Source: Acetobacter garciniae
GTDB taxonomy: Bacteria > Pseudomonadota > Alphaproteobacteria > Acetobacterales > Acetobacteraceae
DNA: 64,000 bases
Direction: 5' to 3'
Assembly: GCF_017377735.1 (NCBI RefSeq)
Contig: NZ_JAFVMH010000001.1
Span: 372,001 to 436,000, forward strand
The notes beneath the pieces are model-generated. The model saw only the letters and a list, made by a program, of their open reading frames with translations. It was not told the DNA's origin and did no database searches. Position numbers and translations under genes: made by a program. Shown in pieces: positions 2,230-19,233 of the stretch. Every line of letters begins with the position of its first letter. Within the stretch, counting starts at the first letter, position 1.

Positions 2230-2473
2230 GGAGCCAACTCCTTGAAAGCGGGGGCACGCGCGCCAGATTCCTGACCATGGTGCATCAGACTACGTGGTGT
2301 AAGGGCTTCACGCGGGAGAGACAATGTTGTTCCCGCGCATGCGGGGCTGCGTGGAGAGGGCAGGGGTGCGGGGCGCTGTCTTTCGGGGTCGGTGCCTGTT
2401 ATGTTCATGACAATTCCGATCGGGGTGGCGGCGCTGTCGCGCACCCCGATGACAGCAGGCAGGAAAAACAGAA

Positions 2474-3310: not shown

Positions 3311-3406
3311 GGCACGCACGCCCATCGGGCGCGAACCGGGCTGCGGGTGAACGACCCCACGCGGCCCGGCTTTATGTGGTTCGGTCCTGTATGGCCCGGC
3401 CTTGAT

Positions 3407-3583
3407 TTAGCGTAGCGGGGCCTTCGCGCGCGTGTCGGCCCTGAGCCCAAGAACCGTGGCCGCCACCGCGAAACCCAGGAATGCCAGCCCGCCGATTTCG
3501 GCCGTGCCGTGGTAATGGGGGGCAATGAAATCCAGGCCCAGGCACGCGAAAACAGCCAGTACGCAGAACAGGCGGAAGGTCAT
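3407..3583 (-). CDS. Small membrane protein, 58 residues
   Basis: A 58-residue open frame: MTFRLFCVLAVFACLGLDFI, then APHYHGTAEIGG, then LAFLGFAVAATVLGLRAD and a basic tail. Two hydrophobic segments (about residues 3-20 and 31-47) predict a two-pass inner-membrane protein with a His-containing loop between them. The start follows an excellent site, AAGGGAGCAGGAACC, which overlaps the TAA stop of the dehydrogenase gene upstream, so translation of the two is probably coupled. I do not recognise a family. The strong ribosome site and clean hydrophobic pattern support a real gene. Confidence 0.7.
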   Translation of the reverse strand: MTFRLFCVLAVFACLGLDFIAPHYHGTAEIGGLAFLGFAVAATVLGLRADTRAKAPLR

Positions 3584-3596
3584 GGTTCCTGCTCCC

Positions 3597-4586
3597 TTAC
3601 GCGGTTACGGGGGAAGGCATGGGCCTGCCTGCCGCCAGAGCCGCCACGTTATCGAGGGCGAGCATGCACATGGCGGTGCGTGTCTCCACCGTCGCACTGC
3701 CCATATGGGGGGTGGTGAACAGGTTGGGCAGGGCCACCAGGCGGGGATTGGGGTTGGGTTCGTGGCGATAGACATCAAGCCCGGCCCCGCTGAGCTGGCC
3801 CGATTGCAGGGCGTCTATCAGCGCGTCTTCATCCACCAGCGACCCGCGCGCCGCATTGACCAGCACGCTGCCACGCGGCAGCAGGGCCAGCGTTTGGGCG
3901 TTGATGATAGGGGGGGCGGACGCATTGCCCGGCATGTGCAATGACACGATATCGCAATGGGGCAGCATGTCTTCCAGCGTGGCGTAATAGGTGGCGCCCG
4001 CTTCTTCCGCCGCATCGAGACGGCGGCGGTTGTGGTAGAGAATATCCATGTCGAACCCGCGTGCGCGCCTGGCCAGCGCCTGGCCGATCCGGCCCATGCC
4101 CACAATGCCAAGCCGCTTTCCGCTTACGCGGTGGCCCAGCATGTCCGCCATGCCCAGCGGCTTTGTCCAGCCGGTTGTCTTGACCAGGGTGAAATATTCC
4201 GCAGCCCGGCGGCTGGCGGCCAGAACCAGCATCATCGCCAAATCGGCGTTGCAGTCGGTCAGCACGTCGGGCGTGTTGGACACGGCAATGCCGCGTTCCA
4301 GCAAAGCGGGCACGTCCAGATGGTCCAGCCCCACGCTGACTGTCGCCACCAGTTTGACGCTGTCGGGCAGCTTGGCAATATCGGGTTTGCGCAGGGGGGC
4401 CGTATGCGTCACCACCATGGCGAAGGGTTTGAATTCGTTGGCCAGTGCTATGGCCGTGGGTGTGTCCATGGCGGTGTCGGGGGGCGGGGGGGCCGTGAAT
4501 TCCGAACGGATGCGCGCTTCCGCCGCGTCAAGCAGGCGAACCGAGCGAATCAGGCGTGGGGGCGTGGCTGTCACGGCGGTCTCCAT
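3597..4586 (-). CDS. D-isomer-specific 2-hydroxyacid dehydrogenase
   Basis: A 329-residue NAD(P)-dependent 2-hydroxyacid dehydrogenase of the glyoxylate/hydroxypyruvate reductase group, which reduces 2-oxo acids such as glyoxylate or gluconate-derived keto acids. Features in order are a substrate-binding N-terminal part with VSVGLDHLD, the Rossmann motif GIVGMGRIGQ, the catalytic Arg in NAARGSLVDEDAL, Glu in DVYRHEP and His in TPHMGSAT. The frame continues upstream to 4892, but family similarity begins near MTAVTATPP-like residues, so the ATG ending at 4586 is chosen. Its ribosome site is poor. It is followed after 13 bp by the small membrane gene. Confidence 0.9.
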   Translation of the reverse strand: METAVTATPPRLIRSVRLLDAAEARIRSEFTAPPPPDTAMDTPTAIALANEFKPFAMVVTHTAPLRKPDIAKLPDSVKLVATVSVGLDHLDVPALLERGIAVSNTPDVLTDCNADLAMMLVLAASRRAAEYFTLVKTTGWTKPLGMADMLGHRVSGKRLGIVGMGRIGQALARRARGFDMDILYHNRRRLDAAEEAGATYYATLEDMLPHCDIVSLHMPGNASAPPIINAQTLALLPRGSVLVNAARGSLVDEDALIDALQSGQLSGAGLDVYRHEPNPNPRLVALPNLFTTPHMGSATVETRTAMCMLALDNVAALAAGRPMPSPVTA

Positions 4587-4863
4587 AATTTTTATTGGTG
4601 CGATAGTTGGGCCGTTGCCTCCGGCCCTGTCAATCTGGCATGGCAGGGATGGCCCCGTGGCGCATGCCCTACCATCCCGGGCATGACCTGATGCCCCGCC
4701 GGTGGCACGGTTCGGGTAACAGGCGCGTCGCAATGATTCGGTCCGGCGATCGGGATTACGGGGCAGCCCCATGCGGCCGCGCCAAGGGGCCAGAACAGCA
4801 GACTGCGTGCGCCATGCAGCCAGGCCACGCAGCCAGCCATACAGCCAGGGAGGAAAGATCCGC

Positions 4864-5499
4864 ATGCCAGAAGGGCTCAGCCCCGAATTCATGCTCGCGG
4901 CCTATGCCGCGGGGCTGTTCCCCATGGCGTCGGAAGACGGCGGGCTGGACTGGTACGATCCCGACCCGCGGGGCATTCTGCCGCTCGATGGCTTTCATCT
5001 GCCCCGGCGCCTGCGCCGCACGGCGTTGTCAGGTCGTTTCGAAGTCAGCGTGGATCGGGATTTCCCTGCCGTCATGCGCGGTTGCGCGAGCCCCGCCCCG
5101 GGGCGGGAGACAACCTGGATCAACGGTCAGATTTACCGGATTTTCTGCGCCCTGCACGATATGGGGTTCGGTCATAGCGTGGAATGCCGACTGGATGGAG
5201 ATTTGGTGGGCGGCCTGTATGGCGTGGCCCTGGGCGGCGTGTTTTTTGGCGAAAGCATGTTCAGTCGCGTGAGCGACGCTTCCAAGGTTGCCCTTGTTCA
5301 CCTGGTGGCACGGTTGCGGCTGGGCGGCTTCATCCTGCTGGACACGCAGTTCGGGACCGACCATCTGGCCACATTCGGCGGGACGGAAATTCCCGCGGCC
5401 CGCTACAAGGCCCTGCTGGAACGTGCCATAGCCATGCCGCCACGCTGGCAGGCAGACATTCCGCCCGATATGCTGGAAAGCGAAATCCGCAATTTATGA
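4864..5499 (+). CDS. aat: Leucyl/phenylalanyl-tRNA--protein transferase
   Basis: A 211-residue Aat enzyme, which transfers Leu or Phe from aminoacyl-tRNA to proteins with N-terminal Lys or Arg, marking them for ClpS/ClpAP degradation. Family blocks seen are LLAAYAAGLFPM-like LAAYAAGLFPMA, WYDPDPRGILPLD.FH.PR, TWIN..IY..F..LH..G.GHSVE, GGLYGVALGGVFFGESMFS and the C-terminal LLDTQF.T.HL..FGG.EIPR-like block. The ATG at 4864 has an AGGAAAG ribosome site 6 bases away; upstream in-frame sequence does not resemble the family. It is divergent from the dehydrogenase gene. Confidence 0.95.
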   Translation: MPEGLSPEFMLAAYAAGLFPMASEDGGLDWYDPDPRGILPLDGFHLPRRLRRTALSGRFEVSVDRDFPAVMRGCASPAPGRETTWINGQIYRIFCALHDMGFGHSVECRLDGDLVGGLYGVALGGVFFGESMFSRVSDASKVALVHLVARLRLGGFILLDTQFGTDHLATFGGTEIPAARYKALLERAIAMPPRWQADIPPDMLESEIRNL

Positions 5500-5524
5500 C
5501 ACCACAGCCGGCCGATTGCGGATA

Positions 5525-5561
5525 AAAGACCTATGAAAGATCCACGAAAGACCCATGAAAG
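5525..5561. repeat. Near-perfect 15-bp direct repeats 22 bp apart
   Basis: AAAGACCTATGAAAG (5525-5539) is repeated as AAAGACCCATGAAAG (5547-5561), 14 of 15 bases identical with a 22-bp period. They lie in the 110-bp spacer ahead of the three exported-protein genes. Two-turn spacing suits a dimeric regulator bound to one DNA face, but this is an inference. Confidence 0.45.
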
Positions 5562-5609
5562 GCGTGCAGACTTGCCGATAACCCTGCGTGAAGATTGGAG
5601 ACAGCCACG

Positions 5610-6425
5610 GTGATTGATATTTCCCCCGTCTTGAGCAAGGGCGCGGGCCATGCGCGGCGTCTGGCGTTGCTGTCCCTGTGCGCGGTGGGGAGCCTGAGCC
5701 TTGGCGTGGGTCACGCCCATGCCCAGCAGGCGATGGATCACCCGCCGCTTACCCCCGCGCGTGATGCCGTGATTGTCTATAGTTTTCAGCCCCGCCCGAC
5801 CGAGCAGGATCTGAAGGCAGGCCCGGCCCCCACCACGCCACTGCCCACGCGGCAGGTGCAGGTCCTGTATTCGGGCGATGGCGGCTTGCTGCGCCTGAAC
5901 TACCTGACGGGGGCTGCCGATGGCGCCAGCCGTGGCGCCGTCATTATCAACCGCGCGGCACAGGAAGTGCTGGTGATCCTGAATACACGCCATATTTATA
6001 CGCGGCTTGTGCAGCAGGAAAGCGTGCGCAACCCGTTCCTGCTCGACCTGTCCATGCAGTTCACCCGCAAGGGAACGGACACGGTGGCGGGTCAGCCCTG
6101 TACGGTCTGGCAGGCTTATTCCGCCCAAGGGTCGACCTCTGCCTGCGTGACCGATGACGGCTTTATCCTGCGCCAGGACGGGGCGGATGTGGATGGGCTG
6201 AACGGCCAGTTGGTGGCGACCAGCGTGTCCTACGAAACGGTGCCCAGCAGCGCCTTCCAGCCGCCGGTGGGGTACCAGGAAGTCAAGCCGCATGCCCCGG
6301 TTCCCGCAGGTGGCGCCGGGGAGGAAGGGCAGGGCCCGGCCGCCCAGCCCCCCGCCAGTGGCGAGCCCGGCAGCAATCCGTCCGACACCAGCCAGCCCGA
6401 TACCAGCCAGCAGGGGAACCCGTAA
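5610..6425 (+). CDS. Exported protein of unknown function, paralogue A
   Basis: A 271-residue protein with a signal peptide: basic ARR, the hydrophobic LALLSLCAVGSLSLGVGHA and a likely AHA-QQ cleavage. The mature part has a beta-rich domain (RQVQVLYSGDGGLLRLNY, GAVIINRAAQEVLVIL) and the block TVAGQPCTVW...TSACVTDDGFILRQ. It ends in a Pro/Gly/Ser-rich tail with DTSQPDTSQ. The pattern is reminiscent of DUF4412/LolA-like periplasmic proteins, but this is only a resemblance. GTG at 5610 is preferred over the TTG at 5595 because GGAG precedes it by 9 bases. Its stop overlaps the next start (TAATG). Confidence 0.7.
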   Translation: MIDISPVLSKGAGHARRLALLSLCAVGSLSLGVGHAHAQQAMDHPPLTPARDAVIVYSFQPRPTEQDLKAGPAPTTPLPTRQVQVLYSGDGGLLRLNYLTGAADGASRGAVIINRAAQEVLVILNTRHIYTRLVQQESVRNPFLLDLSMQFTRKGTDTVAGQPCTVWQAYSAQGSTSACVTDDGFILRQDGADVDGLNGQLVATSVSYETVPSSAFQPPVGYQEVKPHAPVPAGGAGEEGQGPAAQPPASGEPGSNPSDTSQPDTSQQGNP

Positions 6426-7048
6426 TGGTCATGTGTCGTCATGGCGCGCGTCTGGCTTGCGCGGGCACGATCATGTCCTTTCTGGTCGCACTCGCCTGGC
6501 CTGGTGTGGGCGGGGGGCGCGCTTTGGCCCAGGGCACGGCCGATGCCCCTTATGTCACGCCATCGGTGGATGCGGATGTGATGTATGAGGTGGCCTCCGC
6601 CCAGGGGGAGACCTCGGCCCGGCAACGCATGCGCTGGCAGGTTTCCACCCTGCGGCAGCGCCTGGACCCCCAGGGGGCGGGCGTGTTCATGATCACGTCG
6701 TGGAAGGATCGCACCCTGCATGTGGTGGATGAAAGCCGTGGGCGGGAGAGTTCCATGCCCGTCCCCGGCCAGCAGGAACTGACCCTGCCAGGCCAGCACC
6801 CAGCTACGGGCACCTATGCGCGATTGGGGAGTTCCACTGTCGCGGGTGAAGGCTGCACACTATGGCGCACGACCGATACGGACGGGCGACAGACCGATGC
6901 CTGTTATACGGCTGATGGCCTGCTGCTTCAGGTTGTCCAGAACGGGCAGGTGCGTGTGCGCGCGCTCAGCGTCAGTCGCGCAGCCCAGCCGGACAGCGTT
7001 TTTGCCATTCCGGCAGGCCTGAAGTCCGAAGGCCCGGCCCATCCCTGA
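6425..7048 (+). CDS. Exported protein of unknown function, paralogue B
   Basis: A 207-residue protein with an N-terminal signal segment (TIMSFLVALAWPGVGGG, likely cleavage after RALA). The mature domain contains DVMYEVASAQGE, a central FMITSWKDRTLHVVDE stretch and the block STVAGEGCTLW...TDACYTADGLLLQV. That block matches the preceding protein position for position (TVAG..C..W, C.T.DG..L), so the two are divergent paralogues with a probable Cys-Cys disulphide. Its start overlaps the previous stop by one base, indicating translational coupling. Function unknown; envelope location inferred. Confidence 0.7.
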   Translation: MVMCRHGARLACAGTIMSFLVALAWPGVGGGRALAQGTADAPYVTPSVDADVMYEVASAQGETSARQRMRWQVSTLRQRLDPQGAGVFMITSWKDRTLHVVDESRGRESSMPVPGQQELTLPGQHPATGTYARLGSSTVAGEGCTLWRTTDTDGRQTDACYTADGLLLQVVQNGQVRVRALSVSRAAQPDSVFAIPAGLKSEGPAHP

Positions 7049-7873: not shown

Positions 7874-8080
7874 GGTGGCGTATCCATCGGATCGGGTCGC
7901 GCTGTACGGGCTGAGGTTCGTCACGTAAGGCTGTTGGATGACTGCCCCGAAGGTGAGGGGAGAAGACCTGTTTGGAGCGCGGCGTGGCGAGAGGTATTAT
8001 TGAGAGAGTGAGCAGAGTATTATCGCTGTCAAGCAATTTTGTGGAATCACCATTTTTTGCGCAGGACTCGAGAGAGTAGA

Positions 8081-9325
8081 ATGCAGGAGATCAAAAGAGT
8101 GAGCGGCGTTCCTGTTTCTGTGGTCATAACGACATATAATTCTGCGGATATTATAGAAGAAACCCTTTGTAATATTAAAAACCAAACACTTGAGTATTAT
8201 CAGGTTATTGTGGTTGACGATAAATCGACGGATGGTACGGCAGAGATACTGGAAAAATTTGACAAGGAGGACAATTTCAAGATCGTTTTCAACGATAAAA
8301 ACCGTGGTGCTGCCTATTCGAGGAATCTGGCCTTATCCCTTGCTCAGGGTGAGTATCTTATCTTCCTGGACGATGATGATATATATCATCCCGATATGCT
8401 GGAAAAAGCCTATCATGCTGCTAAATCACGTGATGCGGATATAGTGGTTTTCCGGTCATACGGTAAAAATCTGCAGACGCATGATACATCTCCCATGACA
8501 TGGTCCATCAGAGATGATTTATTGCCGGATACGGAGGTTTTTTCTGCCAGGGATATAAAAAACAATATTTTCCACTGCTTTGTATGGTGGGCATGGGATA
8601 AGATTATCAAAAGAAAAATCATTCTGGAATCCGGGTTGCGATTTCAGGAAATAAGAACGACCAATGATTTGTATTTTGTTTTTTCTATTGTTCTCTGCGC
8701 GCAGAGACTGTCAAAAATAGACGATTATCTTATTACGCATGTCTTCGATAGAAAGAACTCGCTCTCCAATACCAGGGAGCAATCGTTCCTCTGTGCGCTC
8801 ATCGCGCTCAGAGGGGTACGGGATGAGTTGATAAAAAAGGGTGTATATGAGCATTATAAAGCATATTATTTTGAATATTGTGTCAGTTTCCTTAATTGGC
8901 ATCTGATTACATTAAAAGACACGGCTTTTTTTGAAATGTATGAATGTATAAAGGATTTCTTTCAGGAAATTCAGTTAGACCCCAGTCTTCTTGCGGGAGG
9001 CTATGAAAAAGAAAAATATAAGGAATTTTCAACGCTTTCTTCCAACGAATATTTAATACGGGAATTTCATAAGCTGAGCCTCGACCGTACGCGGGGCGAG
9101 GTTGAACTGAAAAAGACGCAGGCTGATTTTAAAAACACCGTCACGTCCCTTGAACACAAAGTGGCGTCGCTCGAAGCATCTTTGAATGAAAAAGAGAATA
9201 TTATTATAAAATTAAAGAATTATATTTCTCATATGGAAAGTTCAAAATCGTGGAAAATAACAAAACCCCTGCGCGCGGTTAATTTTTTTGTAAGCAATAG
9301 TGTCGGGAGAGGGGGTAGGAGATAG
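8081..9325 (+). CDS. Glycosyltransferase family 2 with C-terminal coiled coil
   Basis: A 414-residue GT-A fold glycosyltransferase. The GT2 domain covers about residues 8-230, with VSVVITTYNSADIIEETL, VVDDKSTDGT, GAAYSRNLAL and an acidic metal-binding run FLDDDDIYHPDM (Asp near 97-100). A central part of unknown role follows, then a coiled coil (LKKTQADFKNTVTSLEHKVA, about residues 345-395) and the tail SKSWKITKPLRAV. The sugar and acceptor cannot be deduced; neighbouring rhamnose genes suggest surface glycan assembly. The gene is strikingly AT-rich compared with both sides, a sign of transfer. ATG at 8081 is preferred to the GTG at 8039. Confidence 0.88.
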   Translation: MQEIKRVSGVPVSVVITTYNSADIIEETLCNIKNQTLEYYQVIVVDDKSTDGTAEILEKFDKEDNFKIVFNDKNRGAAYSRNLALSLAQGEYLIFLDDDDIYHPDMLEKAYHAAKSRDADIVVFRSYGKNLQTHDTSPMTWSIRDDLLPDTEVFSARDIKNNIFHCFVWWAWDKIIKRKIILESGLRFQEIRTTNDLYFVFSIVLCAQRLSKIDDYLITHVFDRKNSLSNTREQSFLCALIALRGVRDELIKKGVYEHYKAYYFEYCVSFLNWHLITLKDTAFFEMYECIKDFFQEIQLDPSLLAGGYEKEKYKEFSTLSSNEYLIREFHKLSLDRTRGEVELKKTQADFKNTVTSLEHKVASLEASLNEKENIIIKLKNYISHMESSKSWKITKPLRAVNFFVSNSVGRGGRR

Positions 9326-9404: not shown

Positions 9405-10463
9405 TTGCGTATCTTATTGACAGGCGGTTGCGGTTTTATCGGGTCTGCGGTCATCAGGCACCTTGTCCGGACGACCGATCATTCTGTTCTGAACGTGGAC
9501 TGCATGACCTATGCAGCGTCCGAAGAAACAGTGGAAGATGCGTCGTCCAGCGGTCGGTATGCGTTCGCGCGTACCAATATCGTCGATAGCAGCGAGATGA
9601 GCTGCCTGTTCGAGGCGTTTCGTCCCCACGCGGTCATGCATCTGGCGGCCGAAAGCCATGTCGATCGCTCGATCGACGGTCCGGGCGTGTTTATCCAGAC
9701 GAATGTGGTGGGCACGTACTCCCTGCTCGAAGCCGCCCGCAAATACTGGCTGTCGCTCGACAAAGCCGATCGGGCGGCTTTTCGCTTCCATCATATCTCG
9801 ACGGATGAGGTGTTCGGTGCGCTGGGGCCCCATGATCCGCCGTTTACGGAAACGACACCTTACGATCCGCGCAGTCCTTATTCCGCCAGCAAGGCATCGT
9901 CCGATCATCTGGTGCGGGCATGGTACCATACCTATGGGCTGCCCACTTTCGTGACCAATACCACCAACAATTACGGCATCTGGCATTTCCCCGAAAAGCT
10001 TATTCCGCTCATCACCATCAACGCCATCGAGGGCAAGGACCTGCCTGTCTATGGTGATGGCGCCAATGTGCGGGACTGGCTGTTCGTGGAAGACCATGCC
10101 GAGGCCCTGGTCAAGGCGGTCGAAAAAGGCGTTCCGGGCGAAACCTACGCCATAGGTGCCCGCCAGCCGCGCAGCAACCTGGAGGTTGTCCGTACCATCT
10201 GCAAAGTGCTGGACGAACTCGCGCCGGATGCACACGGGCCGCGTGAGCGTCTGATCCGGTTCGTCACAGACCGCCCGGGCCATGATTTCCGCTACGAAAT
10301 CGATCCCTCCCACGCCGAACAGGCGCTGGGCTGGAAAGCCCGGCATGATTTCGAAACCGGAATCCGCCGCACCGTGCAGTGGTATCTGGACAACCGCTCC
10401 TGGTGGGAGGGCATTCGCGCCCGCCGTTATACTGGCAACCGTATGGGAACTGCCGCCGAATGA
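9405..10463 (+). CDS. rfbB: dTDP-glucose 4,6-dehydratase (RmlB)
   Basis: A 352-residue extended short-chain dehydrogenase, second step of dTDP-L-rhamnose synthesis (dTDP-glucose to dTDP-4-keto-6-deoxyglucose). Seen are the NAD motif TGGCGFIGS (residues 7-15), [12 protein letters not shown], the STDEVFG triad segment, YSASK (Tyr159, Lys163) and [17 protein letters not shown]. The usual [14 protein letters not shown] reads [14 protein letters not shown], a small deviation. Translation begins at TTG 9405 after an AGAGG site; no ATG is nearby. Its TGA overlaps the rmlA start (ATGA). Base composition is GC-rich, unlike the preceding transferase. Confidence 0.95.
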
Positions 10464-11371
10464 CACAGAAAACTGCAATTTCCACACCCATGAAGGGTAT
10501 TCTGCTGGCAGGCGGCTCCGGAACCCGGCTCTACCCGATGACCATAGCCACCAGCAAGCAGCTTCTGCCGGTTTACGACAAGCCGATGATCTACTATCCG
10601 CTGTCCACGCTGATGCTGGCCGGTATTCGCGATATCATGATCATCAGCACACCGGCCGACCTGCCGCAGTTCAAGCGCCTGCTGGGGGATGGCTCCCAGT
10701 TTGGCGTGACGTTCGAATACCGTGTTCAGCCCACGCCAGACGGTATTCCACAGGCTTTCCTGATCGCGGAGGACTGGCTGGGTCATGCGCCCAGTGCTCT
10801 CGTCCTTGGCGACAATCTGATTTTTGCGGACCATTTAAGTGTTGCCCTGCAAACCGCTGCCTTGCGGCCTTCGGGGGCGACGGTTTTCGCCTATCAGGTC
10901 CGTGACCCCGAGCGTTATGGCGTGGTGACTTTCGATTCCACGGGGCGCGCATTGAGTATTGTTGAAAAACCCAGCAATCCCCCTTCCAACTGGGCGGTCA
11001 CCGGGCTTTATTTCTATGATGCTCGGGTGCTGGACTTTGCCAAACGGCTCAAACCCTCAGACCGCGGCGAACTGGAAATAACCGATCTCAATCGCTTCTA
11101 TCTGGAAGAGGGATCCTTGCAGGTCGACCGTCTTGGGCGGGGCTGTGCCTGGCTGGACGCGGGCATTCCAGACAGCCTGATGGAAGCAAGCCAGTTTGTG
11201 AATACGATTCAGGCCAGGCAGGGCATGCTCGTCGGCTCCCCGGCCGAGGTCGCCTACCGTATGGGCTTCATTACAGCGGATCAGTTGCGTGATCATGCCC
11301 GATGCATGATCAAGACGGAACTGGGGCGTCTGTTGATGCAGGTTGCCGATTCAGAAGCTGGGCATCGCTGA
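10460..11371 (+). CDS. rfbA: Glucose-1-phosphate thymidylyltransferase (RmlA)
   Basis: A 303-residue nucleotidyltransferase joining dTTP and glucose-1-phosphate into dTDP-glucose, the first rhamnose-pathway step. The signature [16 protein letters not shown], then [20 protein letters not shown], the LVLGDNLIF metal site, [19 protein letters not shown], and [19 protein letters not shown] identify it. The ATG at 10460 overlaps the rmlB stop (ATGA), favouring coupled translation; the family's usual first Met (MKGILL) is ten residues further on but has no ribosome site. Length is normal. Confidence 0.95.
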
Positions 11372-11419: not shown

Positions 11420-11977
11420 ATGAAAACAGAGCGCTTGGCCATTCCTGACGTCATTGTCCTGACACCGCCTCGTTTCGGGGATAATCGCGGTTTCTTCTCG
11501 GAAACCTATAATATCGACCGTATGCGTGAGGCAGGCATCACTCAGCCTTTCGTGCAGGACAACCAGAGTCTTTCCCGCCAGAAAGGCGTTGTGCGTGGCT
11601 TGCACTGCCAGGTTGCGCCCCACGCCCAAGGCAAGCTGGTCCGCTGCACGAAAGGTGCTATCTGGGATGTGGCAGTGGATGCCCGTACCGGTTCCCCGAC
11701 CTACGGCCAATGGGTGGCGGCCGAACTGTCGGAAGACAACTGGTCGCAGCTCTGGATTCCGCCTGGGTTCCTGCATGGCTTCTGCACCCTGACGGAGAAT
11801 GCGGAGGTCCAATACAAATGCACGGCCCTTTACGACAAGGCATCTGAACGCGCGGTGATCTGGAACAGTGCAGAGCTTGCCATTGACTGGCCGATCAAGC
11901 CGGAGGACGCCGTGTTGTCCGAAAAAGACCTGCTGTCCCCCGAATTTTCGGCGGCCCAGGGCTGGTTTCAGCTATAG
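11420..11977 (+). CDS. rfbC: dTDP-4-dehydrorhamnose 3,5-epimerase (RmlC)
   Basis: A 185-residue cupin-type epimerase, third step of dTDP-L-rhamnose synthesis. Family blocks seen are RFGDNRGFFSETYN, FVQDNQSLSRQKGVVRGLHCQ with the catalytic His62, GKLVRCTKGAIWDVAVD, LWIPPGFLHGFCTL and AEVQYKCTALYDK. The common RGLHFQ reads RGLHCQ here. It starts 48 bp after rmlA. Gene order in this window is B-A-C-D. Confidence 0.95.
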   Translation: MKTERLAIPDVIVLTPPRFGDNRGFFSETYNIDRMREAGITQPFVQDNQSLSRQKGVVRGLHCQVAPHAQGKLVRCTKGAIWDVAVDARTGSPTYGQWVAAELSEDNWSQLWIPPGFLHGFCTLTENAEVQYKCTALYDKASERAVIWNSAELAIDWPIKPEDAVLSEKDLLSPEFSAAQGWFQL

Positions 11978-11994: not shown

Positions 11995-12894
11995 ATGAAT
12001 AGTCTCGCACCTCAAGGCGGCCCCATTCTGGTTACGGGGGGGCAGGGCCAGTTGGCGACATCCCTGGTCAAATTGGGGGGGGCGCGTATTCACCGTGTAG
12101 GACGCCCCGATTTCGATTTCGACCGGCCTGAAACGCTGGCACGCATTTTGGATGCCATTGAGCCGGTGGCGGTGGTCAATGCCGCTGCGTGGACCGCTGT
12201 CGATCTGGCGGAAAGTGAGCCCGAAGCTGCGGCTCGCGCCAATACCTCCGGTCCCGCCGAGTTGGCCCGGCTCTGTGCGCTACGAGACATCCCGCTTATT
12301 CATATTTCGACAGATTATGTCTTTGCGGGGAACAAGGGCGCGCCCTATGTGGAAACAGATAGCATTTCCCCCCAGACAGTCTACGGCGAAACAAAAGCCG
12401 AAGGCGAGAAACTGGCATTGGCGGCCAACCCTAAAACCCTGGTTTTGCGCACATCATGGGTTTATTCGGCCCACGGGAAAAATTTTGTGCGGACGATACT
12501 GAACGCGGGCGCTAAAAACCCCACCCTGAAAGTTGTTGGCGATCAGCGTGGTAACCCAACCAGTTCCGATGATCTGGCGCGGGCCATCCTTTCAGTCCTG
12601 GCTGTTATGGAAAAGGATAGCTGGAGAGACGAGTTCGCAGGCATTTACCACGCTTGCGGCACGGGTGAGACAACATGGCATGGCCTGGCCGTCGCAGCGC
12701 TGAAAGAGGCCACAGCCTACGGGCAGGCAATGCCGGACGTGACAGCCATCCGGACAGAAGACTGGCCAACGCCCGCCAAGCGTCCGGCGGTTTCCAGCAT
12801 GGATAGTGCTAAACTGAAGCGCGTATTTGGGGTGGCTATGCCGGCATGGGAAGACAGCTTACGTCAGGTTGTCAAAACGCTTTATAGTTCATAG
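11995..12894 (+). CDS. rfbD: dTDP-4-dehydrorhamnose reductase (RmlD)
   Basis: A 299-residue short-chain reductase completing dTDP-L-rhamnose. Features are the NADPH motif VTGGQGQLATSL near residue 14, VVNAAAWTAVDLAESEPEAA, HISTDYVFAGNKGAPYVE, the catalytic Tyr130/Lys134 in VYGETKAEGE, LRTSWVYSAHGKNFVRT, and GNPTSSDDLA. It begins 17 bp after rmlC in the same operon. With this gene the full four-enzyme set is present. Confidence 0.95.
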   Translation: MNSLAPQGGPILVTGGQGQLATSLVKLGGARIHRVGRPDFDFDRPETLARILDAIEPVAVVNAAAWTAVDLAESEPEAAARANTSGPAELARLCALRDIPLIHISTDYVFAGNKGAPYVETDSISPQTVYGETKAEGEKLALAANPKTLVLRTSWVYSAHGKNFVRTILNAGAKNPTLKVVGDQRGNPTSSDDLARAILSVLAVMEKDSWRDEFAGIYHACGTGETTWHGLAVAALKEATAYGQAMPDVTAIRTEDWPTPAKRPAVSSMDSAKLKRVFGVAMPAWEDSLRQVVKTLYSS

Positions 12895-12920: not shown

Positions 12921-13748
12921 ATGGTCAAAATTGCGCTGATCTATTTTGGTATTTCCAGGAGTCCATCGCAAACGAGAGATGGAATTTACAGGAATATTAT
13001 AAAGCCAAATGAAGATATCGGCGTGGAATTTACACAAATATCGTTTCTAAACATGATCGACAGGATCCATAATGCCAGGTCGGGCGAATATGAAGTCGAT
13101 ATCGATAGAAGCGATTTCCTGAAAATCTATTCTGATTACTATTTTCTTTTTGATCAAAAGAAAAATAAAATCGACGCTGAATTAGAAATTGCAAAAAAAA
13201 GACAAGACCCTTTCTGCGACGATTGGGCTTCTATAAGAAATTTATTAAATCAGTTGTATGTTTTAAAAAATGGGTGGAACGCTTTTGAAGCGATCAATAA
13301 CGATAAGTTTGATGCGTATTTTTTCGTCAGGCCAGACATTTTATATATAGATAAAGTTCTTATACCTGATTTACTGAAAAATATGAGCCACGCTAAATCT
13401 ATATTGATTCCATCATGGCATAGTTGGGGTGGGTTGAATGATCGATGCGCTTTGGCAAGGCCTGAAGCCGCAAAGTTTTATGCATCACGCTTTAATCAAA
13501 TCAAGAAATTTTGCAAGTATAACGACTTGCATTCAGAGTCTTTGTTGGCATGGATTGTGAGTTTGCAAGGATGTTACGTTGGTAACTTACCACTGCGCGG
13601 GAAAAGAGTACGCTCCCAAGGCTATGTGAAAGAAGAGGATTTTCAAGCAGCATCTATGCACATACCTAGCAAGACAAGGAGATTTCACTACAATTCAAGT
13701 AAAAGAGAAGTGCGTTGGGGGTATAAATTAAGAGATTTTCTTTCCTGA
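12921..13748 (+). CDS. Unrecognised protein of the glycan locus, possibly glycosyltransferase-like
   Basis: A 275-residue protein with no signal peptide or membrane segment. It begins with a beta strand VKIALIYFGISRSP, has YFFVRPDILYIDKVL around residue 135-150, SWHSWGGLNDRCALARPEAA around 170-190, and a basic C-terminus. The RPDILY and GGLNDRCALA blocks recall uncharacterised proteins of polysaccharide clusters thought to be glycosyltransferase-like, but I cannot place it in a family with confidence. The gene is very AT-rich, in contrast with rmlD 26 bp upstream, so it was probably acquired separately. Confidence 0.7.
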   Translation: MVKIALIYFGISRSPSQTRDGIYRNIIKPNEDIGVEFTQISFLNMIDRIHNARSGEYEVDIDRSDFLKIYSDYYFLFDQKKNKIDAELEIAKKRQDPFCDDWASIRNLLNQLYVLKNGWNAFEAINNDKFDAYFFVRPDILYIDKVLIPDLLKNMSHAKSILIPSWHSWGGLNDRCALARPEAAKFYASRFNQIKKFCKYNDLHSESLLAWIVSLQGCYVGNLPLRGKRVRSQGYVKEEDFQAASMHIPSKTRRFHYNSSKREVRWGYKLRDFLS

Positions 13749-13893: not shown

Positions 13894-16800
13894 TTGAGTG
13901 GATGTCCAATTTTTATGTCGATCGCTTCTGACACTGATATCATGCACCTTCTGCGTTCAAAAGTAATTTTGGCGGAGCCGCAGTTTTTGGCGTGGCCTCC
14001 CCCATGGGTTGGACATATTCCATTCGCATTTTGGCTCATGGAGAGTTCACGTCCGACGTGCATGGTGGAACTGGGAACTCATACTGGTAATTCTTATTGT
14101 GCGTTTTTGCAGGCGGCGATTGCTTGCGATTTGCCTATTAAATCCTATGCTGTCGATACTTGGGAGGGTGATCCCCACGCGGGTTATTATGGTAATGAGG
14201 TTTATGATGAGCTTAGTGCTTATCATAATCCCTTATATGGTGCGATTTCTTGCTTGATGCGGATGACTTTTGACCAGGCGCTTGATTATTTTTCCGATGG
14301 CTCGATCGATTTATTGCATATTGATGGTTTGCATACATATGATGCTGTAAAAAATGATTTTACAAAATGGCTTCCCAAAATGAGTCGGAGAGGCATAATT
14401 CTATTGCACGATATTAATGTGCGTGAACGGGGATTTGGTGTATGGAAATTGTGGGAAGAAATATCCGTGCAATATCCGGCTTTTTCTTTCGATCATTCTA
14501 ATGGCTTGGGCATGGTCTATGTGGGTTCTGAACCTATGCCCGAAAATATTCGCTGGTTAATAATGGACGTGGCGGTAAATTCAGAGCGACTAGCCGTTGT
14601 CCGTCGCTTTTTTTCACGTCTGGGTGCTGGTTTGTTTGATAGAGCATGGTCGCAGGAGCGCGCCAATCTTTTGTCGCGGGCCATGGACGAGAACCAGCGT
14701 TTTAGTGACATGGTTGTGGAACGCGACAATCGATTGAAGCCCTTATATGAAGAAGTAGAACGTCTTAATACTTTGCTCAACGATGCTACGGCGGCCGTGC
14801 ATCATGCCAATGATATGGTTGTGGAGCGCGATAATCGATTGGAGCCTCTCTATAAAGAAGTGGAGCGCCTCACTACTTTATATAAAAAAGCTGAAGCTAC
14901 GTATCCCATTAGACTCAAAATATTACAGAATGATGTAAAAAAATATACCAGCGAGATTTCCGAGCGCGACGACCGGTTGAGTATTCTTTATCCGGAAATT
15001 GAGCGCCTTAATGCGGCGGTTAAAGATTTAGAGATTCAGTTGCATGCAGTTTATGCCTCATCATCATGGCGCATTACAGCTTGGATGCGGTGGTGTAAGA
15101 CTTCTATCCGGACGGGGTTGCTTAAGTTTCGCTTTATAAAAAGAATTATGAGGCCTCTGTTGAATGAGGTTATTCGTAGGCCAAATAGGTTGCCGAAGCG
15201 TATTATCTTTATGCTTGCTTGTTTCTATAAGCTTGGGGTGCGCGGCACGTGGCGGCATTTAATTCAAATTGTGGATTTGCCTAGGCATAATGAAAGTGCG
15301 GCAACGGTAGTTTTGAAAGAAGAAAACTCGGAAAAAAAAGGCAGAAATATATGGTCAAGTAAGGAGCCGCTGCCAGTTTATGAATCATGGTTGGCTGTTA
15401 ATAGACTAAGCCGTGGCGCTATTGACAATATTTGCGCTTCTCTTGGAGAGCGAAAGGGTCGCACTCCGAAAATTTCATTGATTACGCCTGTTTATAATAC
15501 AGATCCCGTTTTTTTCGAGGAATTGCTTGAATCTGTTCTTGCGCAGGTATATGATGATTGGGAATTGTGTCTTGTCGATGATTGTAGCAGTGCACCGTAT
15601 GTAACAGCTATGCTGGAAAGAGCGATAGCTCGTGATTCACGTATCAAAACCACCCGTTTGGAGAAAAACGGGGGAATAAGTGTGGCTACGAATGCTGGCG
15701 TTGAAATGGCTAGTGGAGAGATTGTTGCCTTTCTTGATCATGATGATTTGATTACTCCTGATTGTTTGGCGGAATTGGCTATTTATTATGCGGATCATCC
15801 TGATGCGGATATTGTTTATAGTGATGATGATAAAATAGATACAAAGGGTCATCGTTATGCGCCTCAGTTTAAGCCGGACTGGGCGCCAATATTGCTTTTG
15901 TCATTTATGTATATTTCACATGTATTTAGCGTTCGTCGATCTCTCTTCGTCGAATTAGGTGGTTTTCGTAAATCATTTGACGGTTCTCAGGATTATGATT
16001 TTGCTTTGCGCGCTGCAGAGAAAGCCCGTCATGTAGGTCACATTCCAAAAATTCTCTATCATTGGCGTGCGGCTCCTGGTTCTACGGCCGTCTCTGCGGA
16101 TAATAAGCCTGCAAGCATCGAGGCAGGTCGTCGCGCCGTGCTGGAGGCCATGAAACGCCGGGGTTATTCTGATGTGCGTGTGATACATCCTGACTGGGCC
16201 GCCAAGGCACGATGCGGCATATTCGAACTTATTTTCCCTGATGATGGTCCATCAGTAACGATTGTTATTCCTACCAAAAATCAGGTTGATTTCCTTAGAA
16301 CTTGTATAAACTCTCTGGTAAAAACGACATATCGTAATTACAATATTCTAATCGTTGATAATGAGAGTGATGATCCCGAAGCAATTGCTTATCTGGAATC
16401 TCTAACGTTAGCTCCTCACATTCGGGTGGTTTGCATACCCAGCCCCGAAGGAGGATTTAATTTTGCTAATCTTAACAACAGGGCGGTTCAAGAATACTGC
16501 ACTACAGAGTATATATTGTTTCTTAACAACGATACCAAAGTCATATCGCCTGGATGGTTAAGCCAGATGATGGGTTATGGTCAGATGCCGGGAGTTGGCG
16601 CTGTAGGAGCAAGACTTTACTTTGAGGATAATACGGTCCAGCACGCAGGTGTTGTTCATGGCTATCATGAGGGACTGGTCGGGCATGCGTTTCGCAATAT
16701 TCCTCGACATGATTGGGGATATATGGGTTTTGTTCGAACATCACGTGAATATTCTGCCGTAACAGCAGCCTGTATGTTGACTTCGCGGACATTGTTCGAA

Positions 16801-18282
16801 GAGTTGGGTGGCTTTGATGAGTTGAATTTTCCGGTTTCTTATAATGATGTTGATTATTGCTATAGAGTTGTAATTTCAAACCGGAGTTGTGTTTATTGCG
16901 CGACCGCTGAGTTGTTTCATTTTGAGAGTAAAACACGAGGTTATAAATATAATCCACACGAGCGAATAAATTTTCGTCGTATTTATGGCAATTGGTACGA
17001 CCGTTGGTATAATCCCAATTTGTCGCTGGAGAATGAGCGCTTTGAACCAGCAGCGGTCTGTTTGCAGAGTCGTCGGAATAATCCTGTCAATGTGGTAATG
17101 GTTACGCATAACCTGAATTATGAAGGCGCGCCCTCCGTTTTAATGGATCTGACCGTCGGTCTAATAAAGCGAGGGAATATTCATGCCAAAATATTGTCGC
17201 TACGGGACGGTCCACTTCGCGAAGTTTATGAGGCAGAGGGTATTCCAGTACATATTATGTCTCGCTCACCGCTGCATGACGTGCATGATGCGGCAACATT
17301 AGCTCGTAGTTGTGAGGATTACGGGGCTTTGTTGAAGCAATTGGGAGCCGAGGTCGTAGTCGCCAATACTCTTCAGAATTTTTGGGCAGTTATTGCTGCA
17401 ACCTACGTTGGTCTGCCTTCGATCTTGTGTCAGCACGAGAGTGAGGCATGGGAGAGCTATTTCGACTACCTGCCCGAGGCAATCCGTTTTTATGCATACA
17501 ATGCATTTGCTGAAGCTTACAGGGTCATCTATGTGGCTGATGCAACGCGTCGTGCGTGGCATAAACTTGATAGCCAAGGTACATTCAAGCTTGTTCGTCA
17601 CGGGATTCCTCCCGCGCGTTTGGCGGAGATGGTCTCTCGATGGGATCGTGCGCAGGCCCGCAATTTGTTGAACCTTGGGAATAGGGAAGTGGCAATTGTG
17701 GTGGTGGGCACTCTTTGTGCACGTAAGTCTCAGTTGGATATAATAGAAGCTTTTTCTTGGTTGGAGGAAAAAACTCAGGATAAGATACGCATATTCTTAG
17801 TGGGTGCAAATGGAGAACCAGCTTATACGGACGTGATTACGTCTCGTATCAACAGTTTGCCTTCGTCAGCGGCCAATAGGATAGTGTTAACAGGACCAAC
17901 AAGTGATCCATTTATATATTACGCGGCGGCTGACATTGCTGTATGTACTTCACGTATAGAAAGTGCACCACGAGTAATTGTGGAAGCAATGGCTTTCGGG
18001 TTGCCTATCATCACGACGCCAGTATTCGGTATACCAGAGCAGGTGTATGAAAATGTGAATGCTTTGTTCTATCCACCTGGTGATGTGGAGGAATTGGCAA
18101 TTCTCATGGCCAATCTAGTAGAAGATGACGCATTACGCCAAAAACTGGCAACAAAAAGCCGGGCTGTATTGGATAGTCAGCCTAGTTTTGCAGACATGGT
18201 AGAGGAATATGATAAAATCATTCAACAGGCGGCTGACCTTGAGGTTGTCTCAAGTAAGATAAGGCAGGACATGCTCCTCTGA
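13894..18282 (+). CDS. Multi-domain glycan assembly protein: methyltransferase, coiled coil, GT2, GT2, GT4
   Basis: A 1462-residue fusion. Approximate residues: 50-215, class I SAM methyltransferase (MVELGTHTGNSY, IDLLHIDGLHTYDAV, ILLHDINVRERG); 270-388, coiled coil with repeats of the form ERDNRLxPLYxEVERL; 389-400, tail SSSWRITAWMRW; 524-750, first GT2 (ISLITPVYNTD, LDHDDLITPD, SQDYDFALRA); 784-1050, second GT2 (VTIVIPTKNQVDFL, FLNNDTKVISPG, GGFDELNFPVSYNDVDYC); 1062-1450, GT4 GT-B (NLNYEGAPSVLMDL, HGIPPARL, ESAPRVIVEAMAFGLP). Similar fusions such as WsaE build repeat units with several linkages in one chain. It probably acts in the cytosol at the membrane face. Start uncertain: TTG 13894 or ATG 13915. 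AT-rich. Confidence 0.9.
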   Translation: MSGCPIFMSIASDTDIMHLLRSKVILAEPQFLAWPPPWVGHIPFAFWLMESSRPTCMVELGTHTGNSYCAFLQAAIACDLPIKSYAVDTWEGDPHAGYYGNEVYDELSAYHNPLYGAISCLMRMTFDQALDYFSDGSIDLLHIDGLHTYDAVKNDFTKWLPKMSRRGIILLHDINVRERGFGVWKLWEEISVQYPAFSFDHSNGLGMVYVGSEPMPENIRWLIMDVAVNSERLAVVRRFFSRLGAGLFDRAWSQERANLLSRAMDENQRFSDMVVERDNRLKPLYEEVERLNTLLNDATAAVHHANDMVVERDNRLEPLYKEVERLTTLYKKAEATYPIRLKILQNDVKKYTSEISERDDRLSILYPEIERLNAAVKDLEIQLHAVYASSSWRITAWMRWCKTSIRTGLLKFRFIKRIMRPLLNEVIRRPNRLPKRIIFMLACFYKLGVRGTWRHLIQIVDLPRHNESAATVVLKEENSEKKGRNIWSSKEPLPVYESWLAVNRLSRGAIDNICASLGERKGRTPKISLITPVYNTDPVFFEELLESVLAQVYDDWELCLVDDCSSAPYVTAMLERAIARDSRIKTTRLEKNGGISVATNAGVEMASGEIVAFLDHDDLITPDCLAELAIYYADHPDADIVYSDDDKIDTKGHRYAPQFKPDWAPILLLSFMYISHVFSVRRSLFVELGGFRKSFDGSQDYDFALRAAEKARHVGHIPKILYHWRAAPGSTAVSADNKPASIEAGRRAVLEAMKRRGYSDVRVIHPDWAAKARCGIFELIFPDDGPSVTIVIPTKNQVDFLRTCINSLVKTTYRNYNILIVDNESDDPEAIAYLESLTLAPHIRVVCIPSPEGGFNFANLNNRAVQEYCTTEYILFLNNDTKVISPGWLSQMMGYGQMPGVGAVGARLYFEDNTVQHAGVVHGYHEGLVGHAFRNIPRHDWGYMGFVRTSREYSAVTAACMLTSRTLFEELGGFDELNFPVSYNDVDYCYRVVISNRSCVYCATAELFHFESKTRGYKYNPHERINFRRIYGNWYDRWYNPNLSLENERFEPAAVCLQSRRNNPVNVVMVTHNLNYEGAPSVLMDLTVGLIKRGNIHAKILSLRDGPLREVYEAEGIPVHIMSRSPLHDVHDAATLARSCEDYGALLKQLGAEVVVANTLQNFWAVIAATYVGLPSILCQHESEAWESYFDYLPEAIRFYAYNAFAEAYRVIYVADATRRAWHKLDSQGTFKLVRHGIPPARLAEMVSRWDRAQARNLLNLGNREVAIVVVGTLCARKSQLDIIEAFSWLEEKTQDKIRIFLVGANGEPAYTDVITSRINSLPSSAANRIVLTGPTSDPFIYYAAADIAVCTSRIESAPRVIVEAMAFGLPIITTPVFGIPEQVYENVNALFYPPGDVEELAILMANLVEDDALRQKLATKSRAVLDSQPSFADMVEEYDKIIQQAADLEVVSSKIRQDMLL
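14707..14882 (+). repeat. Tandem 105-bp coding repeat in the coiled coil
   Basis: Two copies begin at 14707 and 14812 (period 105 bp, 35 residues, five heptads), each coding for DMVVERDNRL.PLY.EVERL. A third, more degenerate copy starts at 14950 (SEISERDDRLSILYPEIERL), 46 residues later. DNA similarity of the first two is high enough to suggest recent duplication within the gene, lengthening the coiled coil. Confidence 0.75.
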
Positions 18283-18334: not shown

Positions 18335-19233
18335 TTAGTTGATATGCGCTTCTGATGCCAGCCTGGCTGGGAGGTGAAGCGTCGCGGAACCGAGCGGCCA
18401 CGCTGGCATTCTGATTGTTTCTGGCGCTGGCGGGCGGTATTGCAGGCTGCTGTGTGGGCGCATCCGGTTGTAATGGTCGCGCCACCAGCCGGTGACGGCC
18501 TTTACTTCCTCAAGGCTGTAGAAGATCTCGCCATTGAGCAGTTCGTCCCGCAGATGGGCATTGAAGCTCTCGATGTAGCCGTTTTCCCAAGGGCTACGGG
18601 GTTCGATGTAGAAGGTGATGGCACCCACTCGGCCCAACCATTCGCGCACCGCGTTGGCGACGAATTCGGGGCCGTTATCCGATCGGATATGCCCAGGCGG
18701 CTCATGTTCGATGAATAGATCGATCAGCAGATCGACCATATCGTTCGACCGGGACCGCCGCAGCGGCACCGTTGCCAGACATTCCCGGCTGCACTCGTCG
18801 ATGATGTTGAGTATCCGGTATCTGCGGCCGTTGTGCGTCCGATCTTCGACGAAGTCATAGGACCACACGTGCCCACGATGCTGTGGGCGCAGCCGGATGC
18901 ACGATCCGTCGTCCAACCATGGCCGACGCCGTTTCGGTTGCCTCTTCGGAACTTTGAGACCCTCCCGCCGCCAGATCCGCTCTACCACCGACAGGCTGAC
19001 CTGCTAGCCAGCACGCCCCAGAAGGGCATGGATGCGGCGATAGCCATAGCGGCCGTAATCCTTGGCCAGCGCGCGATGATATCGGCTGTCAGTCGATGCT
19101 CGTCGGCATCATCCTTTGGCAGATGACGCTGTGTCGAGCGGTGCTGGCCAAGCACCCGGCAGGTCAGCCGTTCCGATACCGCCAATGCACAACGGACCTG
19201 TACGATCGCCTCACGGCGACGGGAGGGGCTCAA
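18335..19233 (-). pseudogene. IS3-family transposase orfB, frameshifted and with a stop codon
   Basis: The N-terminal piece (LTCRVLGQHRSTQRHLPKDD...LTADIIA, 19233 down to about 19070) and the C-terminal piece (VERIWRREGLKVPKRQPKRR through the rve integrase core) are in different frames. Around 19066-19072 the sequence GCGCGCTGGCC appears to carry two extra bases relative to the expected ALAKDYGRYGYRRI reading. At about 19005-19007 TAG stands where Trp of GWQVS is expected. The core still has the DDE residues (SYDFVEDRT, IRSDNGPEF, SPWENGYIESFN), so decay is recent. Ends with LPARLASEAHIN. Confidence 0.85.

What the first reader, a model, noticed from the sequence alone, without database searches (positions are those of the whole stretch)
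13894..18282. Five-module glycan assembly protein (methyltransferase, coiled coil, GT2, GT2, GT4)
One 1462-residue chain carries a SAM methyltransferase, a long coiled coil, two GT-A and one GT-B transferase, all with catalytic motifs intact. Such a protein could add three sugars and cap or methylate the chain while the coiled coil sets chain length, a molecular-ruler idea known from WbdD and related multi-domain polymerases. The module order here, methyltransferase first, is unusual to me.
Basis: partly seen in the sequence, partly recalled or inferred. Interest (0 to 1): 0.75.

Follow-up and report, generated by a model that had tools for sequence, protein, structure and literature searches.

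The report
Five-module sugar-chain builder and capper
One bacterial protein joins a methylating cap enzyme, a long rod-like spacer and three sugar-adding enzymes, probably to build, measure and cap a rhamnose-containing surface polysaccharide; it is a new arrangement of a known kind of machine rather than a new kind.

Summary
In detail: the frame at 13894-18282 encodes methyltransferase, coiled coil, GT2, GT2 and GT4 in one chain with catalytic motifs present. The likely start is ATG 13915 (1455 aa). The claim that methyltransferase-first is unusual fails: WsaE, WbdD and Klebsiella O7 ORF6 are methyltransferase-first, and ten relatives collected here carry MT ahead of GT2-GT2. The appended GT4 is rarer: four five-module loci were found (window, two Azospirillum, one other genus of that family) and they form one clade. 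The GT2 pair shows the DXDD/NXD pattern of the two dTDP-rhamnose transferases of O7 ORF6; rmlBACD lies just upstream. Best explanation: a single-chain rhamnan polymerase, ruler and methyl terminator. The modules are shown; activities, sugar and ruler function are inferred. Against the simple story, the three other five-module loci lie beside Wzm and a Wzt bearing Wzt_C, whereas this genome has no Wzt_C match over the cut-off. The gene sits in a low-GC island next to an IS3-type transposase, so export may differ or the system may be incomplete. New variant of a known kind.

The parts
   Evidence: open frame; start by alignment with the A. tabaci orthologue
13915..14562 (+). Methyltransf_24 domain (residues 1-216), COMT-like class I O-methyltransferase fold
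   Evidence: Pfam; AF2 pLDDT over 90 in most blocks; Foldseek and VIA
14581..15057 (+). long helical rod / coiled coil (residues 223-381)
   Evidence: AF2 helices; hydrophobic period 3.52 in its main part, 0 of 2000 shuffles
15058..15270 (+). SSSWR motif and basic amphipathic helices (residues 382-452), possible membrane contact
   Evidence: net charge +14 in the 90 residues after the coiled coil; helices 383-400, 405-421, 428-452
15460..16218 (+). first GT2 module (residues 516-768), DHDD and SQD
   Evidence: Pfam; alignment of 15 rows
16234..17043 (+). second GT2 module (residues 774-1043), NND
   Evidence: Pfam; alignment of 15 rows
17080..18279 (+). GT4 module (residues 1056-1455), GT-B family by profile
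   Evidence: Pfam; profile search of PDB
9405..10463 (+). rmlB, dTDP-glucose 4,6-dehydratase
   Evidence: TIGR01181 over cut-off
10493..11371 (+). rmlA, glucose-1-phosphate thymidylyltransferase (inner ATG of the 10379 frame)
   Evidence: TIGR01207 over cut-off
11420..11977 (+). rmlC, dTDP-4-dehydrorhamnose 3,5-epimerase
   Evidence: TIGR01221 over cut-off
11995..12894 (+). rmlD, dTDP-4-dehydrorhamnose reductase
   Evidence: TIGR01214 over cut-off
8039..9325 (+). GT2 protein with a helical tail ending SKSWKITKPLR; candidate adaptor transferase (role inferred)
   Evidence: Pfam PF00535
12921..13748 (+). 275-aa protein of unknown family between rmlD and the five-module gene
   Evidence: no Pfam match up to E 10

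Best explanation
A single-chain glycan assembly protein. From the GT end it extends a lipid-linked chain on the inner face of the membrane: the tandem GT2 modules add L-rhamnose from dTDP-rhamnose and the GT4 module adds the third, chemically different linkage of the repeat. The basic helices after the coiled coil hold the protein at the membrane. The coiled coil keeps the metal-dependent O-methyltransferase at a set distance, so only a chain long enough to reach it is methylated on its terminal sugar, which stops growth. Shown by computation: the modules, their motifs, the rod, the rml genes, the single origin of the five-module form. Inferred: every catalytic activity, rhamnose as the sugar, the order of additions, membrane contact, the cap, the ruler.
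For: Five modules with motifs. Rod directly between methyltransferase and polymerase. GT2a DxDD and GT2b NxD in 15 of 15 aligned rows, the pattern whose mutation separated the two dTDP-Rha transferases of O7 ORF6 (PMC11231755 section 10). rmlBACD upstream, all four over the NCBIfam cut-off; rml genes also near relatives in NGR234, A. ramasamyi, A. argentinense and about 8-11 kb from both Azospirillum five-module genes. NGR234 relative lies in the cluster needed for its rhamnan O antigen (PMC3732241), and wbgA mutants support a rhamnosyltransferase (PMC9415975); that this gene is wbgA is inferred from gene order and recall. Methyltransferase fold matches O-methyltransferases including MeT1, a sugar 1-O-methyltransferase of a methylmannose polysaccharide. 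Catalytic modules are conserved (A. tabaci 61-83%) while the coiled coil drifts (48%) at near-constant length, 135 against 132 residues. Wzm and Wzt with Wzt_C beside 3 of 3 other five-module loci.
Against: No activity is shown. This genome has no Wzt_C match over the cut-off (best 11.6 bits against 30.4), and its two candidate Wzm/Wzt pairs are unlinked, with no Wzt_C in the ATPase and ABC2_membrane scores below cut-off. The top MeT1 match methylates O-1, not a non-reducing end, and ties with catechol-type enzymes, so substrate is not fixed. No rml gene was seen in the 35 kb read around the fourth five-module gene (G704), and heptose-type genes flank the Azospirillum copies (HddA/HddC names are mine). 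In that G704 protein the rod is much shorter (85) and its period weaker (9 of 2000 shuffles).
Confidence: 0.58

Rival explanations
1. The methyltransferase decorates residues inside the chain (methylated rhamnose in each repeat), and the coiled coil only tethers it; there is no termination.
For: Azospirillum O antigens with 2-O- and 3-O-methylrhamnose units are known (PMC4153317, passages; those are D-rhamnose). No terminator-reading Wzt_C in this genome.
Against: Wzt_C beside the three other five-module loci fits an end group that is read for export; in the characterised coiled-coil proteins the enzyme beyond the coil is the terminator (PMC11231755 section 13).
Confidence: 0.2
2. The island is a partial acquisition: the gene came without its transporter, was cut off by the IS, and makes no exported polymer in this host.
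For: aat to asmA distance is 14.1 kb here against 2.2-6.5 kb in the 29 other genus genomes with both genes close together; gene GC 44.8% beside asmA 64.8%; IS3-type transposase frame 53 bases after the stop; no Wzt_C.
Against: The frame is intact over 1455 codons, rmlBACD and the motifs are intact, and Wzm/Wzt-like pairs without Wzt_C exist elsewhere in the genome. The genome is in 43 contigs, so a missing transporter is not certain.
Confidence: 0.25
3. The GT4 adds a side branch or a different sugar (for example heptose or glucose), so the backbone is made by the GT2 pair alone, as in the four-module relatives.
For: Ten relatives carry MT with GT2-GT2 and no GT4 hit; heptose-type genes flank the Azospirillum copies; the GT4 is the least conserved catalytic module (61% and 41%).
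Against: In the window only rml genes accompany it; the WsaE/WsaF pair is a precedent for two WsaE transferases plus a separate rhamnosyltransferase making a trisaccharide repeat (PMC2943079, PMC3898925, passages).
Confidence: 0.4

Closest known systems
Klebsiella pneumoniae O7 ORF6 (PMC11231755; abstract, sections 10, 12, first parts of 11 and 13 read)
   Same: N-terminal methyltransferase part, coiled coil, then two C-terminal GT2 modules with DXDD and NXD motifs; rhamnose polymer; ABC-transporter pathway
   Different: ORF6 has a kinase and a CBM-like domain between methyltransferase and coil and makes methyl-phosphate; its third transferase is a separate ribofuranosyltransferase. Here no domain lies between methyltransferase and rod and a GT4 is fused
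WsaE with WsaF, Geobacillus stearothermophilus (PMC2943079, PMC3898925, PMC9415975; passages)
   Same: methyltransferase first, two transferase domains making two rhamnose linkages, rml genes, direct O-methyl cap without kinase
   Different: the third transferase WsaF is a separate protein; WsaF (2x0d, entry code recalled) is not among the 60 PDB rows shown of 92 for the GT4 profile; WsaE sequence was not in hand
Klebsiella O12 WbbB (PMC11231755 section 13)
   Same: terminator, coiled-coil ruler and polymerase in a single polypeptide
   Different: two polymerase GT modules; its three GT modules are in families GT99, GT102 and GT103; no methyltransferase named there
E. coli O9a WbdD with WbdA, and the O8 methyltransferase-only WbdD (PMC3482155, passages)
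   Same: N-terminal methyltransferase held away from the polymerase by a coiled coil; the O8 form works without a kinase
   Different: polymerase is a separate protein; O9a WbdD has a kinase domain; mannose polymer
WbgA of Sinorhizobium fredii NGR234 (assignment to NGR_RS31785 inferred)
   Same: Methyltransf_24 then GT2-GT2 in one frame beside rmlABD
   Different: no GT4; the stretch between methyltransferase and GT2a has only a short helical part by eye

Membership tests
coiled-coil terminator-ruler-polymerase proteins of the ABC-transporter pathway | terminator-type enzyme at the far end of a coiled coil from the polymerase | tested here: met
   Methyltransf_24, rod, GT modules in this order; that the enzyme terminates is not tested
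coiled-coil terminator-ruler-polymerase proteins of the ABC-transporter pathway | extended coiled coil | tested here: met
   period 3.52, 0 of 2000 shuffles; AF2 helices 223-327 and 331-381; oligomeric state unknown
coiled-coil terminator-ruler-polymerase proteins of the ABC-transporter pathway | cognate Wzm/Wzt exporter with a Wzt_C domain reading the end group, in the same genome | tested here: not met
   no Wzt_C over cut-off in the own genome, 43 contigs, 99.5% complete. Met beside the other three five-module loci. So terminator-coupled export is not claimed for this host
coiled-coil terminator-ruler-polymerase proteins of the ABC-transporter pathway | coiled-coil length sets chain length | not testable with these tools
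   needs mutants and LPS gels
WbdD / O7 ORF6 methyltransferase-kinase terminators | kinase domain between methyltransferase and coil | tested here: not met
   helix 223 follows the methyltransferase directly; no kinase in Pfam
WsaE-type methyltransferase / dual rhamnosyltransferase | N-terminal methyltransferase plus two GT domains, rml genes in the cluster | tested here: met
WsaE-type methyltransferase / dual rhamnosyltransferase | sequence kinship with WsaE | not tested
   WsaE sequence not in hand
WsaF-type GT4 beta-rhamnosyltransferase (for the GT4 module) | sequence kinship with WsaF | tested here: inconclusive
   not among the 60 of 92 PDB rows shown
COMT-like metal-dependent O-methyltransferases | fold and acidic/His metal-site residues | tested here: inconclusive
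   fold: VIA Z 18.3 to 16.2 over 50 rows, e.g. 2hnk_A Z 18.3, rmsd 2.3, 174 aligned; MeT1 6g80_M Z 17.6, rmsd 2.8, 184 aligned. D137, H165 and D166 conserved in at least 90% of 15 and of 20 rows; metal binding itself not tested

The most novel reading that the evidence does not exclude
A complete all-in-one assembly machine: one polypeptide that contains every transferase for a trisaccharide rhamnan repeat, the ruler, and a kinase-free methyl terminator of the Methyltransf_24 family, and that in this host works with an exporter lacking the end-group-reading Wzt_C domain, so that chain capping and export are uncoupled.
Probability: 0.25. Interest if true: 0.6.

Novelty: new variant of a known kind. 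Interest (0 to 1): 0.38.

Why it matters
If the reading is right, a natural set of proteins with the same polymerase and rods of about 85 to 186 residues (ends chosen by eye) allows the ruler idea to be tested by comparison. A capped chain in a genome without Wzt_C would ask whether capping and export must be coupled. The Methyltransf_24 cap enzyme would add a terminator family without a kinase.

Tried and rejected
Unusual module order: rejected.

Hidden kinase or CBM as in O7 ORF6: not seen in Pfam or in the AF2 model of residues 1-492.

GT4 as a WsaF orthologue: not supported, not excluded. WsaF is absent from the 43 rows and from the 60 of 92 rows shown.

Sequence search of PDB with the methyltransferase alone and with a 15-row profile gave only weak matches, best 0.026 (an unrelated receptor-type protein) and 0.0028 (a SAM-dependent O-methyltransferase, 3r3h); the fold search was needed. 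In the VIA list WbdD and the sugar methyltransferases MycE/MycF do not appear among the 50 rows shown; that is no evidence against kinship.

AlphaFold2 of the GT2-GT2-GT4 half with two sequences failed (mean pLDDT 37.2) and was not used.

The search for related loci in genome contigs found one relative only, because its peptide patterns were strict; whole-genome searches found more.

Unknown 275-aa neighbour: no Pfam (63), no plasmid match (62), no believable PDB match (91), matches in 2 other genomes of 147 (92).

Paper searches for a five-module protein in print: one search found no paper with five of its six terms; this is a narrow search and not proof. A copy of Broughton 2006 was not held.

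Limits: in the large genome searches only two candidates per genome were scored and seven, so weaker orthologues could be missed. The loci compared were chosen for likeness to this protein, so counts of architectures are not frequencies. In the methyltransferase tree L050 is a very long branch and 8 of 15 inner branches are open.

Full report
What is there. The frame 13894-18282 on the + strand is open for 1462 codons from TTG. The A. tabaci orthologue begins at the position of the internal ATG 13915, so the protein is probably 1455 aa. Pfam finds Methyltransf_24, two GT2 and one GT4 domain above their cut-offs. Between methyltransferase and first GT2 lies a stretch with a 3.52-residue hydrophobic period that none of 2000 shuffles reaches; AlphaFold2 draws it as helices 223-327 and 331-381 (mean pLDDT 79.3, 20 sequences). 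After it come the motif SSSWR and about 70 residues of helices; the 90 residues from SSSWR on carry a net charge of +14, which could hold the protein at the membrane (inference).

Catalytic residues. In an alignment of 15 rows the first GT2 has D[HN]DD and [SA]QD and the second N[ND]D in 15 of 15. The paper on Klebsiella O7 reports for ORF6 a DXDD motif in the first and an NXD motif in the second GT2; mutating each showed that both use dTDP-Rha, the first adding two alpha-1,2 and the second one alpha-1,3 rhamnose (PMC11231755 section 10). The GT4 keeps E-x7-E (motif recalled). The methyltransferase keeps the SAM loop and D137, H165, D166, each conserved in at least 90% of 15 rows and of 20 rows.

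Methyltransferase fold. Foldseek ranks MeT1 of Mycobacterium hassiacum first (6g80_M, E 5.8e-9, TM by target 0.60, 14% identity). VIA ties many COMT-like O-methyltransferases: 3c3y_A Z 18.3 (rmsd 4.9, 187 aligned), 2hnk_A Z 18.3 (2.3, 174), 6g80_M Z 17.6 (2.8, 184). MeT1 blocks the 1-OH of methylated mannosides (PMC9883506, passages). So a metal-dependent O-methyltransferase acting on a sugar is plausible; the position is unknown. No kinase sits between it and the rod, unlike WbdD of O9a and O7 ORF6.

Relatives; 182 of 195 genomes have some match at E 0.001, but only the own genome has a full-length one; 7 of 397 family genomes reach E 1e-125, only the own one along the whole chain (two candidates scored per genome); 11 of 385 class genomes reach 1e-120; G704 matches residues 492-1446; 6 of 82 genomes of that family reach 1e-140. 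Reading the loci gives four five-module genes: window, A. tabaci (L032; G857 has a contig of the same length, 178952 bases, and is taken as the same), G821 of the same genus (L162) and G704 of another genus (L153). Ten further loci carry MT then GT2-GT2 in one frame without a GT4 hit: L033, L034, L035, L048, L050, L053, L054, L060, L061, L164; L060 and L061 have about 700 residues more that my probes do not name. L165 and L166 have GT2-GT2-GT4 without the methyltransferase. L036, an E. coli plasmid, has methyltransferase and GT2-GT2 as two genes. Others have GT2-GT2 with other N-terminal parts.

One origin. In trees of the GT2 pair (23 rows) and of the methyltransferase (18 rows) the four five-module proteins form one clade (100/99 and 95/94), with the window beside the two Azospirillum copies (100/99 in both) and G704 outside. 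The window gene thus lies inside an otherwise Azospirillaceae group, although its genome is in another family. Gene GC is 44.8% here, 71.2% in A. tabaci, 60.3% in G704. This speaks for lateral transfer; direction is open.

Island. GC is 37-45% in the five-module gene, the 275-aa gene and the GT2 gene at 8039, 58-59% in the rml genes, 64-65% in the flanking genes measured (profile). The distance from aat to asmA is 14123 bases here and 2168-6546 (median 2277) in the 29 other genus genomes in which both lie close together on one contig; the remaining genus genomes have them apart, on different contigs, or lack a match (one of the 29, G029, has a partial aat match). A transposase frame, 158 bits to the IS3 model against a cut-off of 160 and matching its C-terminal half, ends 53 bases after the gene.

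Sugar. rmlB, rmlA, rmlC and rmlD upstream each pass an NCBIfam equivalog cut-off. rml genes also lie by relatives in NGR234 (L033), A. ramasamyi (L034) and A. argentinense (L035) and 8-11 kb from both Azospirillum five-module genes, but none was hit in the 35 kb read around the G704 gene. In NGR234 the cluster from rgpF to rmlB is needed for the rhamnan O antigen (PMC3732241, passages), and mutants support WbgA as a rhamnosyltransferase (PMC9415975, passages, citing a paper whose title names rgpF and wbgA). That NGR_RS31785 is wbgA is my inference from order and recall. Around the Azospirillum copies there are also genes I read as heptose-activating (HddA/HddC-like; names mine, no family call), so another sugar there is possible.

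Ruler. [quoted passage not shown] coli O9 and Klebsiella O12 (PMC11231755 section 13). Here, against A. tabaci, identity is 75% (MT), 48% (coil), 37% (linker), 83%, 75% and 61% (GT2a, GT2b, GT4), while coil length is 135 against 132 residues; against G704 the coil is 85 residues and its period less firm, 9 of 2000 shuffles. In the eight proteins tested the coil spans 85-186 residues (ends chosen by eye). By eye NGR234 has only a short helical stretch there. Conserved length with drifting sequence fits a spacer; one close pair is thin evidence.

Export. The three other five-module loci have Wzm and a Wzt with Wzt_C close by. In this genome the A. tabaci Wzt finds 40 ATPases, none matched beyond query residue 259 of 452, and the Wzt_C family has one match of 11.6 bits, below the cut-off of 30.4 (the same search rings over the cut-off in 2 of 14 control genomes). 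Two ATPase plus permease pairs resembling Wzt/Wzm exist (L045, L046), permeases below the Pfam cut-off. So the link of end group to exporter, usual for this kind, is not met in this host. Either export goes through a Wzt_C-free pair, or the transporter was lost or lies in a gap, or the system is silent.

Verdict. The protein works, most likely, like O7 ORF6 and WsaE: polymerase and cap enzyme in one chain, here with a third transferase fused and a long coil. It is a new variant of a known kind. The module order is not novel. The useful parts are the all-in-one set, the set of relatives with different coil lengths, and the missing Wzt_C.

Noticed in passing
window 12921-13748 (+): 275-aa protein without Pfam match; relatives in 2 other genomes of 147 searched (35% and 42% identity). 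GC 37.2%.
   Followed up: partly
window 8039-9325 (+): GT2 followed by a helical tail ending in SKSWKITKPLR, like the SSSWRITAWMR after the coil of the five-module protein; S-x-SW[RK] also occurs in L032, L034, L035, L054, L055, L057, L061 and in L153 and L162. A recurrent join after coiled coils, unnamed as far as I know.
   Followed up: partly
L032 8001-12689, protein residues about 470-590: Three copies of a roughly 42-residue repeat (D-x-x-WYL ... NPDV ... NPL-x-HY ... EGR-x-P) between linker and GT2a in both Azospirillum copies, absent from the window and G704 copies.
   Followed up: no
L050 9500-12226 (-): Relative whose methyltransferase has lost the HIDG and HD residues and is a very long branch: perhaps a dead cap enzyme on a live polymerase.
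   Followed up: no
L074-L147 (IMG/VR): 74 viral contigs encode relatives of this methyltransferase, up to 48% identity, mostly as single small proteins.
   Followed up: no
window 18335-18988 (-): IS3-type transposase frame, C-terminal half of the model, 53 bases after the five-module gene.
   Followed up: partly
L036 7890-12781 (+): E. coli plasmid with the methyltransferase and the GT2 pair as two adjacent genes, beside an ABC exporter and an N-acetylneuraminate synthase family gene.
   Followed up: no
L045 10158-12118 (-), L046 9805-11566 (-): Two unlinked ABC exporter pairs of the own genome resembling Wzt/Wzm without Wzt_C.
   Followed up: partly
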